A stretch of 35,465 nucleotides of DNA from Planctomycetota bacterium (GTDB lineage Bacteria; Planctomycetota; Phycisphaerae; UBA1845; JANYLN01): positions 1 to 35,465 of the forward strand of contig JANYLN010000006.1 in assembly GCA_025357795.1 (NCBI GenBank), in the 5' to 3' direction. How positions within the stretch are numbered: the stretch's first letter is position 1; the number at the start of each line of letters is the position of its first letter. Made by a program: the position numbers and the translations under genes. Positions 1,214 through 23,590 of this stretch are shown here, one piece after another. The notes below the pieces were generated by a model that had not been told where the DNA came from, did not search any database, and saw only the letters and a list, made by a program, of their open reading frames with translations.

Positions 1214-1484
1214 CCGCCGCGCCGGGGTCCAGGACTACGTGAGTCGCGGCCTGCTCTCCCGCGTGTGGCTACGGGCGTAAGGACTAAACTGCTGCCTACG
1301 GCCACGGGGGCGGCCGAGAAAGGCTTAAAAATCTTCCTGACACCTTTGCTGTTCTGAGTCGATTTCCGACAGTATACGAGTTGGGACAATCTCCTGTTGT
1401 CCGATCGGGTTTTGCGCTTGAGCGGGACGCCGTTTGCCGCTATTGTCTTGCGAATTGCAGGGCTGGATCTTGGGCTGGACCCAG

Positions 1485-1541
1485 GAATGTTCATGGCCAG
1501 GATGGCCATGCCACAAGGACATGCGATTGCCCTGTGGCTGG
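1485..1541 (+). repeat. Dispersed palindromic repeat family A, copy 1
   Basis: GAATGTTCATGGCCAGGATGGCCATGCCACAAGGACATGCGATTGCCCTGTGGCTGG. Shared with 1651-1709 and 14962-15011. Internal hairpin CATGGCC-AGGAT-GGCCATG. Confidence 0.8.
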
Positions 1542-1544
1542 ACC

Positions 1545-1582
1545 CAGGGCGATCGCATGTACGTGGCGCGGGCATCGTGCCC
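1545..1582 (-). repeat. Repeat family A, partial inverted copy forming a head-to-head pair with copy 1
   Basis: Reverse complement reads GCACGATGCCCGCGCCACGTACATGCGATCGCCCTGGG, matching the 3' half of family A, especially the 14962 copy (CCACACGTACATGCGATTGCCCTG). Confidence 0.6.
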
Positions 1583-2368: not shown

Positions 2369-2435
2369 GCCTTCCGATAGAATAAGAACACGGCTCCGCG
2401 TCGGTCAGAATACCGCGCGGAGGTCCGTGACAGAA

Positions 2436-2597
2436 TCCGCGGGGTTGTCGTTGGTTACAAGCCCCCTGCGCAGGGGGCTTGTACGCTTCACCCCCTTCCA
2501 AGCCTATCGTGCGTTCGGGGCCGACCCCCTGCTGCGCCCCTCGTTACACTCGGGGCATCCGCAGGGGGCTTGTAACGGCAACCCGCGGAGCCGTTCT
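2436..2597 (+). repeat. Dispersed intergenic repeat family C, copy 1, with inverted ends
   Basis: The ~119-bp core 2470-2588 is nearly identical to 23393-23511. The left end CCGCGGGGTTGTCGTTGGTTACAAGCCCCCTGCG is an imperfect inverse of the right end CGCAGGGGGCTTGTAACGGCAACCCGCGG. Perfect 28-nt palindrome TACAAGCCCCCTGCGCAGGGGGCTTGTA at 2456-2483. Confidence 0.85.
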
Positions 2598-2672
2598 TTT
2601 TGCCTGCTGGCACGGTATGCATCCCCCGCTTAGACTGCCTGCGGTTGGGCTACGCTCCAGAGGACTCGATCC

Positions 2673-14859: not shown

Positions 14860-14923
14860 TTCTTTCCTCCTGAGGTACTGATTCACTAGAGCGTTTCCGA
14901 TTATCTCCAGCGGGAGCGACAGC

Positions 14924-14955
14924 ATGGTCCTGCAACAGCGCAGGACCATGGCACC
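14924..14955. repeat. Dispersed hairpin repeat family B, copy 1
   Basis: ATGGTCCTGC-AACAGC-GCAGGACCAT, a perfect 10-bp stem, followed by GGCACC. Shared with 19496-19528. Confidence 0.8.
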
Positions 14956-14961
14956 AGCCTG

Positions 14962-15011
14962 GGATGTTCATGGCCAGGATGGCCATGCCACACGTACATG
15001 CGATTGCCCTG
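14962..15011 (+). repeat. Repeat family A, copy 3
   Basis: GGATGTTCATGGCCAGGATGGCCATGCCACACGTACATGCGATTGCCCTG, near-identical to 1485 and 1651 copies. Confidence 0.8.
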
Positions 15012-15228
15012 CGACGGGGGGCGAGGCTGTGCTGCTGTGGGGGGAGCGCATCCGACGTATTGGGTGTGCACTGGCCATCTCGACCCGAAGGACCGAATGC
15101 GGCTGGTCCTTCCGTCGAGGATCCTTGAGACGAGCAATCCGCCGCTTGCCTCACTCATGGGTGCTCCTCCAGCACGACGAGCCTGGTCGGCCGGCAGGAC
15201 ACTTGGCGGGATGGTTCGCGCCGCGGGG

Positions 15229-15318: not shown

Positions 15319-15361
15319 GGCAGCCTCACCCTTCCCACGAGGGTCCGTTGGCCGATACATG

Positions 15362-15540
15362 CGCTTTTGGAAGGTCTTCTGACTTCCGGGTTTATAGCCT
15401 ACTAACCGTCCTTCCCGACCCGCAGGGTTGCGGACCAGTGGTATTACGGCGTTCGTGCCCGGTTACAGCGGCGGGGCCATTCCGGATTTGCACCGGATTC
15501 CCTTGTTAAGCCGCCGGCATACGACCGGCGGCCGCCAAAA
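15362..15540 (-). promoter_or_regulatory. Cobalamin (AdoCbl) riboswitch
   Basis: Minus strand reads GCCGCCGGTCGTATGCCGGCGGCTTAACAAGGGAATCCGGTGCAAATCCGGAATGGCCCCGCCGCTGTAACCGGG...AACCCGGAAGTCAGAAGACCTTCC. It has the conserved GGGAA, GGTGcAAATCC, CCCCGCcgCTGTAA and GTCAGaAGACC blocks. Confidence 0.92.
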
Positions 15541-15891
15541 GCGCTAACCTATATCTGTACGACGTTAAAACTCTACACGATTCTATTTTTCTGTCAAGGC
15601 GGGTATTGCTCGAATGTGATCCTGGGCAACAGATTGTGGATTGCCGCGAGGTGGTACCCATCGCGGGGGATGCACGGTCCCCCGGCCCAACGGCACGGGC
15701 CTGGGGCGCAACCGGCGACTATCGCGCAAACCGCGTCAAATTCATCTGTTACACACCTGCCTGAGGTGCAGGCATATTCCCAACAACGGCAGGAAAAGCG
15801 AAATCCTAACCCTGACCTGCTACCAGCCCGCGAACCGGCGAAACAGCCGAGACGGGAAATGCAATCATTTCGTTTTAGCACGGTGTCGCGG

Positions 15892-19406: not shown

Positions 19407-19495
19407 GGCTAAATGGTCCGTCCACCTTGCTTCCATGGGTCATCGGGATCGGGAGATCTTGCACGCCTGCCAACGGCGCGGGCGTGGCAGCCGGC

Positions 19496-19528
19496 GTGGT
19501 CCTGCAACGGCGCAGGACCATGGCACCC
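19496..19528. repeat. Dispersed hairpin repeat family B, copy 2
   Basis: GGTCCTGC-AACGGC-GCAGGACC followed by ATGGCACCC, matching 14924-14955. Confidence 0.8.
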
Positions 19529-23197: not shown

Positions 23198-23392
23198 TTT
23201 TTACCAGACGGACTCGGTTGCCGGTCAGGACGTAACAAAGATTGTATGACCGTCGTACGAATTGTCGCCTGGGGGGCCATGGGAATCGAAAGCGATGGGG
23301 AAAGCAAGGGTAACGCCACGGCGGGACTCAGAGATGGGAGACGGCAAGTGGCAGGGCAGGACGGAGGGCCTGGTACGCCGCCATAGCCTGCT

Positions 23393-23511
23393 GCGCGGGG
23401 GCTTGTACACTTCACCCCCTTCAAGTCTATCGTGCGTTCGGGGCCGACCCCCTGCTGCGCCCCTCGTTACACTCGGGGCATCCGCAGGGGGCTTGTAACG
23501 GCAACCCGCGG
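23393..23511 (+). repeat. Dispersed intergenic repeat family C, copy 2
   Basis: Near-identical to 2470-2588 (GCTTGTACACTTCACCCCCTTCAAGTCTATCGTGCGTTCGGGGCCGACCCCCTGCTGCGCCCCTCGTTACACTCGGGGCATCCGCAGGGGGCTTGTAACGGCAACCCGCGG). Confidence 0.85.
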
Positions 23512-23590
23512 GTCCTGTCACGGACCCGGACACAGGGTCTGAACGACAGCGTTTGCCCGTGGCGGGCTTGGGTTGTATCGTGTCGGGCAT

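What the first reader, a model, noticed from the sequence alone, without database searches (positions are those of the whole stretch)
2436..2597. Near-identical ~119-bp intergenic element (family C), copy 1, with imperfect inverted ends
The core 2470-2588 recurs at 23393-23511 with only a few changes over 21 kb. The ends are inverted (CCGCGGGGTTG..GTTACAAGCCCCCTGCG / CGCAGGGGGCTTGTAAC..CAACCCGCGG). A perfect 28-nt palindrome lies at 2456-2483 and a nested hairpin CCCCCTGC[GCCCC...GGGGC]GCAGGGGG at 2525-2568. No ORF is convincing inside. Could be a MITE-like element or a structured RNA family.
Basis: seen in the sequence. Interest (0 to 1): 0.6.

Follow-up and report, generated by a model that had tools for sequence, protein, structure and literature searches.

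The report
Promoter-targeting miniature transposon (ISKra4-type MITE)
The repeated DNA block is the shortened remains of a small parasitic transposon that borrows the cutting enzyme of a larger one, and across this bacterial order such elements sit at nearly the same distance (about 27 bases) in front of gene promoters.

Summary
The 119-bp core is the right part of a ~270-bp non-coding element with at least 13 copies in the window's own genome. Window copy 1 (2421-2588) has an internal deletion and a lost right tip. Copy 2 (23368-23527) lacks its left end. The 28-nt palindrome is a deletion scar in copy 1 and is absent from fuller copies.

The ends (GGGTSCGTGACAGNNTCCGCGGG) match those of decayed ISKra4-family insertion sequences in the same genome. 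Most two-ended copies carry 9-bp target-site duplications. So it is a MITE of the ISKra4 (Mutator-like) type, not a structured RNA.

A further result: the ends lie at a fixed distance from promoters. Own copies suggested a -35 box about 26-27 nt outside the terminal repeat. In 86 independent ends from 12 other genomes of the order, 22 had a strong promoter-like pair at offset 27, against 0-2 at any other offset. Of 47 two-ended miniature elements, 31 had one at 27±1.

Promoter targeting is published for some ISKra4 and TnGBS/ISLre2 elements, at 13-17 nt. In the open-access papers searched I found no report of it for MITEs, or at this spacing. Likely mechanism: the transposase recognises promoter-bound RNA polymerase (inferred).

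The parts
2421..2588 (+). MITE copy 1 (168 bp): intact left terminal repeat, ~100-bp internal deletion, right tip truncated at CCCGCGG
   Evidence: Alignment with 12 other copies; terminal-repeat pattern hit 2421-2443 with 1 mismatch
2421..2443 (+). left terminal inverted repeat AGGTCCGTGACAGAATCCGCGGG
   Evidence: 23 sites in the genome at up to 3 mismatches, reversed-pattern control 0
2456..2483 (.). perfect 28-nt palindrome, read as the scar of an internal deletion between CTGCGCAG/TGCGCAG repeats
   Evidence: present only in copy 1; full copies have ~100 bp between the two repeats
2560..2588 (-). right subterminal arm (CCGCGGGTTGCCGTTACAAGCCCCCTGCG read inward); outermost 16 bp of the right repeat missing
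   Evidence: alignment
2412..2420 (+). presumed left copy of the 9-bp target duplication (ACCGCGCGG); the right copy appears lost together with the right tip, probably via the shared CGCGG
   Evidence: Position flush with the repeat; inferred, because the right end is truncated
2390..2400 (+). 5' arm (ACGGCTCCGCG) of the presumed intrinsic terminator downstream of the APS kinase gene, split by the insertion
   Evidence: Rejoining 2385-2420 to 2589-2612 gives a perfect ACGGCTCCGCG/CGCGGAGCCGT stem followed by T5, -34.7 kcal/mol
2589..2601 (+). remaining 3' part of that terminator (AGCCGTTC + TTTTT)
2607..2636 (+). putative promoter of the UDP-glucose dehydrogenase gene (CTGGCA 2607-2612, 18 nt, TAGACT 2631-2636): offset 27 from the element if the lost 9-bp duplication is counted
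   Evidence: consensus match only
23368..23527 (+). MITE copy 2 (160 bp): left ~115 bp missing, right terminal repeat intact
23505..23527 (-). right terminal inverted repeat GGGTCCGTGACAGGACCCGCGGG
23553..23581 (+). putative promoter (TTGCCC 23553-23558, 17 nt, TATCGT 23576-23581), -35 at offset 25, just before ATG 23591
   Evidence: consensus match only
23359..23367 (+). possible decayed target duplication GGACGGAGG, compare GGACACAGG at 23528-23536 (7 of 9)
   Evidence: weak, since the left end of this copy is missing

Best explanation
The feature is a deleted copy of a ~270-bp non-autonomous miniature element (MITE) mobilised by a transposase of the ISKra4 family (prokaryotic Mutator-like DDE enzymes). 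The transposase binds the 23-bp ends, moves the element, and leaves a 9-bp target duplication (ends and duplications shown; the transposition step is inferred from the family). Insertion is aimed: one end, usually the right one in this family, comes to lie about 27 nt upstream of the first base of a -35 box, that is 18 nt beyond the 9-bp duplication (shown statistically). The likely reason is that the transposase recognises the upstream edge of promoter-bound RNA polymerase (inferred). This leaves the core promoter intact and so is tolerated. The GC-rich repeats inside the element later led to deletions, one of which produced the 28-nt palindrome of copy 1. Copy 1 also split the presumed terminator of the upstream APS kinase gene. 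No intact ISKra4 transposase was found in this draft genome, so the family now looks stranded here.
For: Thirteen dispersed copies. End pattern found 23 times against 0 for the reversed control, including the ends of ISKra4 remnants. ISKra4 transposase C-terminus inside one remnant, NF033572 E=7.5e-31. Nine-bp duplications flush with the ends in C84 (8/9), C67 (8/9) and C192 (9/9), and in a full-length ISKra4 IS of a same-order genome, L104 (9/9). Two-ended relatives in other genomes: 26 of 47 match at 8-9 of 9. Promoter placement: own copies peak at offset 26-27. Independent ends peak at 27: mean 4.10 against a circular-shift maximum of 3.17, and 22 sites at score >=6.5 against 0-2 at other offsets. 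Per element, 31 of 47 at 27+-1 against 0-4 at offsets away from the peak. Transposase-bearing ISKra4 elements show the same placement (L098, L104, L113, L115). Literature: p-MULT elements have 18-39-bp repeats, 8- or 9-bp duplications, and some ISKra4 members insert upstream of sigmaA promoters (PMC3942029).
Against: C272 and C55 have intact ends but no duplication. No true empty site could be compared, because no genome of the same genus or family was returned. The ISKra4 copies in this genome are all fragments. About a third of miniature elements show no promoter at the preferred distance. Promoters are consensus matches with an ad hoc score, not mapped starts.
Confidence: 0.9

Rival explanations
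1. A structured RNA family (riboswitch, sRNA or RNA thermometer) conserved in intergenic regions and acting through the nested hairpin.
For: Copy 1 folds very stably (z -4.3). Copies lie between genes and mostly point the same way as the downstream gene.
Against: No compensatory changes; inner hairpin missing in C84; terminal repeats and 9-bp duplications; copies truncated at varied points; no Rfam match; not found in 40 same-order genomes or 392 genomes of the phylum.
Confidence: 0.03
2. A REP/BIME-type palindromic repeat moved by a RAYT (IS200-like tyrosine transposase).
For: Short, palindromic, intergenic, many copies.
Against: Ends match a DDE IS (ISKra4) and leave 9-bp duplications, which Y1 transposases are not known to make (own knowledge); unit is ~270 bp; the promoter rule is that of Mutator-like transposases.
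Confidence: 0.02
3. It is an ISKra4-type MITE, but the promoter spacing is only survivor bias: insertions elsewhere in intergenic regions were lost because they harm promoters.
For: Selection does shape where insertions persist, and no transposition was observed.
Against: Selection alone would allow any distance upstream of a promoter; the observed peak is 1-3 nt wide. Transposase-bearing ISs share it, and published p-MULT elements show fixed-distance insertion (PMC3942029).
Confidence: 0.06
4. The element supplies the promoter itself, so the -35 and -10 boxes are part of the mobile unit.
For: Correia elements and other MITEs carry outward promoters (PMC10969869).
Against: The hexamers lie outside the terminal repeat and beyond the 9-bp duplication, in flanks that differ from site to site.
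Confidence: 0.02

Closest known systems
ISKra4 family insertion sequences (p-MULT 4, ISKra4 group; PMC3942029)
   Same: Terminal repeats shared with ISKra4 remnants in the same genome; 9-bp duplications; insertion upstream of sigma70/sigmaA-type promoters; other members of the order carry an ISKra4 transposase between similar ends with the same promoter spacing.
   Different: No transposase, ~270 bp instead of the ~1.5 kb of same-order ISKra4 elements; -35 box at 27 nt from the repeat instead of the published 13-17 nt (it is unclear whether the published figure counts the duplication).
TnGBS ICEs and ISLre2 (p-MULT 3)
   Different: Different transposase clade, far larger or coding elements, 15-17 nt spacing.
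Prokaryotic MITEs in general (Correia, MITEAba12, BrickBuilt; review PMC10969869)
   Same: Small, non-coding, inverted ends, target duplication, mostly intergenic, thought to be mobilised by an IS transposase in trans.
   Different: The review does not mention ISKra4, Mutator or Planctomycetes. Promoters reported for those MITEs lie inside the element; here they lie outside it.
REP/BIME palindromic repeats
   Same: Palindromic, intergenic, multicopy.
   Different: Has DDE-type target duplications and ISKra4-type ends, and a much longer unit.

Membership tests
MITE | short, no transposase gene | tested here: met
   Full copies 268-281 bp
MITE | terminal inverted repeats | tested here: met
   31-bp to ~65-bp repeats in C84, C272, C55; 23-bp pattern 23 hits, control 0
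MITE | target-site duplication of constant length | tested here: met
   9 bp in 3 of 5 two-ended copies (8/9, 8/9, 9/9); chance of 8 or more matches about 1.5e-4 each; two copies show none
MITE | dispersed copies with different flanks | tested here: met
   13 loci on 12 contigs
MITE | ends shared with an autonomous element | tested here: met
   ISKra4 remnants at C1, C31, C40, C111, C156; the copies in this genome are no longer autonomous
MITE | empty site in a relative | not testable with these tools
   No genome of the same genus or family was returned; only the inferred terminator repair at copy 1
ISKra4 family element (as its non-autonomous derivative) | 18-39-bp inverted repeats and 8- or 9-bp duplication | tested here: met
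   values from PMC3942029; similar GGGT ends seen in same-order ISKra4 copies
ISKra4 family element (as its non-autonomous derivative) | encodes an ISKra4 transposase | tested here: not met
   Not encoded; it would have to act in trans. Only transposase fragments remain in this draft genome. Hence filed as a MITE with ISKra4-type ends, not as an ISKra4 IS
ISKra4 family element (as its non-autonomous derivative) | insertion at a fixed distance upstream of promoters (some members) | tested here: met
   spacing differs from the published figure
structured RNA family | compensatory base changes | tested here: not met
   0 pairs with both sides changed; only 9 similar copies, so power is limited
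REP/BIME with RAYT | association with a RAYT gene | not tested
   No RAYT search was made; the DDE-type duplication argues against it

The most novel reading that the evidence does not exclude
In this bacterial order, a large and diverse set of species-specific MITEs, unrelated in their interiors but sharing ISKra4-type ends, is aimed by ISKra4 transposases at one precise spot: first base of the -35 box 27+-1 nt outside the element, about one helical turn further upstream than published for TnGBS and ISKra4 elements. Such MITEs then serve as natural markers of promoters in uncultured bacteria and imply a transposase that docks on promoter-bound RNA polymerase.
Probability: 0.6. Interest if true: 0.68.

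Novelty: new variant of a known kind. Interest (0 to 1): 0.55.

Why it matters
Few prokaryotic transposons are known to choose a target by position relative to a promoter. Here the rule holds at 1-3 nt precision over a dozen genomes and several unrelated MITE families. That could make these elements a tool for mapping promoters in uncultured bacteria. It also gives a testable case for how a DDE transposase reads promoter or RNA polymerase position, comparable to Ty3 in yeast. For annotation, it explains a class of 'conserved intergenic palindromes' as insertion debris.

Tried and rejected
Structured RNA (Rfam, pair counting, RNAalifold): rejected. Matches of the element's middle to G019 and G034: lie inside open reading frames with no element ends, taken as chance. 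Looking for the element outside this genome: no exact core match in genome contigs or viral contigs, no plasmid match, none in 392 genomes drawn from the phylum. Naming the host by its UDP-glucose dehydrogenase: best hits 48-56% in mixed phyla, not decisive. A left-end promoter rule like that of the right end: weaker in own copies (offset 28-29, 3.98 against a 95% null of 3.79), seen in C37 and C253 only. A local duplication of the two window copies: rejected because of the other 11 loci.

Full report
WHAT IS THERE. The two window copies are real, but the unit is larger than described. A search of the window's own draft genome (3.54 Mb, 338 contigs, 88% complete) found 13 loci. Aligned, they define a ~270-bp element: left end GGGTCCGTGACAGAATCCGCGGGTTGTCGTTGGTTACAAGCCCCCTGCGCAG, an interior of roughly 160-170 bp, and right end ...GCAGGGGGCTTGTAACGGCAACCCGCGGGTCCTGTCACGGACCC. 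C84, C272 and C55 are two-ended and nearly full. Window copy 1 is the left end joined to the right part with the right tip missing; window copy 2 has only the right part. Several short contigs begin inside the element, as expected when assembly breaks at repeats.

THE PALINDROME. In full copies the left CCCCCTGCGCAG and the inner TGCGCAGGGGCTTGTACGC are about 100 bp apart. In copy 1 they are fused, which creates the perfect 28-nt palindrome. I read it as a deletion product between short repeats, not a conserved feature. Other copies show other deletions, for example C67 between two CCCCCTGC stretches.

WHICH TRANSPOSASE. The 23-nt end pattern GGGTSCGTGACAGNNTCCGCGGG occurs 23 times at up to 3 mismatches in this genome; the reversed pattern occurs 0 times. 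Some hits are ends of a different, coding element: at C1:13125-13810 the ends enclose a 168-codon open frame, the C-terminal part of an ISKra4 transposase (NF033572, E 7.5e-31), and C31, C40, C111 and C156 are further decayed copies. No copy passes the family cut-off in this genome. Full-length ISKra4 elements do occur in other genomes of the order, some with ends GGGTGCRTGACA.

TARGET DUPLICATIONS. Of five own copies with both ends, three have 9-bp duplications flush with the ends (C84 8/9, C67 8/9, C192 9/9; random pairs reach 8 or more about 1.5 times in 10,000). The full-length ISKra4 IS L104 has a perfect 9-bp duplication. PMC3942029 reports 18-39-bp repeats and 8- or 9-bp duplications for this transposase superfamily. 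Copy 1 has lost its right duplication, but joining its flanks restores a perfect terminator-like stem (ACGGCTCCGCG/CGCGGAGCCGT followed by TTTTT) downstream of the APS kinase gene (gene identity). This is an inferred empty site.

A POSITIONAL RULE. While looking for the promoter preference published for some ISKra4 members, I scored -35/-10-like pairs outward of each end. Right ends of own copies peaked at offset 26-27 (mean 4.72 against a shuffled 95% level of 3.80). I then tested this on material not used to find it. The end pattern occurs in 44 of 114 genomes of the order, while the reversed control gave two hits among the listed genomes. I fetched 80 stretches from 12 other genomes. In 86 distinct ends the mean score peaked at offset 27 (4.10; the largest of 300 circular-shift controls was 3.17). 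At score >=6.5, 22 ends had a pair at exactly 27, and no other offset had more than 2. Among 47 two-ended elements of 58-336 bp, 31 had a pair (score >=6.0) at 27+-1 at one end, compared with 0-4 at offsets away from the peak; only 2 had it at both ends; 26 of 47 had a 9-bp duplication at 8-9 of 9. These miniature elements fall into many families without detectable similarity inside (clusters are genome-specific). Transposase-bearing ISKra4 copies show the same spacing (L098 TTGACT-16-TACAGT at 27; L104 TTGCCC-16-TATGAT at 28; L115 TTGACA-17-TACATT at 26). In the own genome 10 of 13 copies fit at 25-28, counting copy 1 with its duplication restored.

MECHANISM. Shown: ends, duplications, dispersal, deletions, positional rule. 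Inferred: mobilisation in trans by an ISKra4 transposase, and docking on promoter-bound RNA polymerase, which PMC3942029 proposed for TnGBS. The -35 box is 18 nt beyond the duplication, so the core promoter stays intact. The consequence for the host is probably separation of the promoter from upstream sequence and, at copy 1, damage to the upstream terminator; no expression data exist.

KNOWN OR NEW. MITEs are a known kind, and promoter-directed insertion is known for ISKra4, ISLre2 and TnGBS elements (13-17 nt, PMC3942029). I found no report of ISKra4-type MITEs with this rule in the open-access library, and the 2024 MITE review does not mention ISKra4 or Mutator. Subscription papers and ISfinder could not be searched. 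Whether 27 nt differs from the published distance depends on whether that one counts the duplication.

LIMITS. The promoter score is ad hoc and promoters are not mapped. The spacer range was narrowed from 15-19 to 16-19 between the two scans. The independent ends are from one order and were chosen from the listed hits, not at random. No sister genome was available for empty sites.

Noticed in passing
window 1484-1548, 1650-1714, 14961-15025: A second palindromic family whose inverted ends CAGGGCAATYGCATGTNN occur 50 times in the genome (control 0), many pairs about 126-160 bp apart; an intact ISAs1 transposase on contig C31 is bracketed by the same ends (3403 and 4699), so this looks like an ISAs1-type MITE.
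   Followed up: partly
window 14922-14955 and 19494-19527: A third short palindromic repeat GCATGGTCCTGCAACAGCGCAGGACCATGGCACC, 94% identical between its two copies.
   Followed up: no
window 15352-15554 (-): Cobalamin riboswitch, 104.9 bits.
   Followed up: no
L067 1501-1512 (G000:C265:5040-5062): A lone ISKra4-type terminal repeat lies in what may be the 3' end of an open frame; possible excision footprint or decayed insertion that altered a protein end.
   Followed up: no
L245 (G448:C95:3268-3529): A 262-bp miniature element with promoter-like pairs at offset 27 at both ends and no target duplication; might be a recombinant of two insertions.
   Followed up: no
L011 around 1447-1470; L060 near 1530: ISKra4-type insertions immediately next to ISAs1-type palindrome ends (TGCGATTGCCCTGG); nested or neighbouring insertions.
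   Followed up: no
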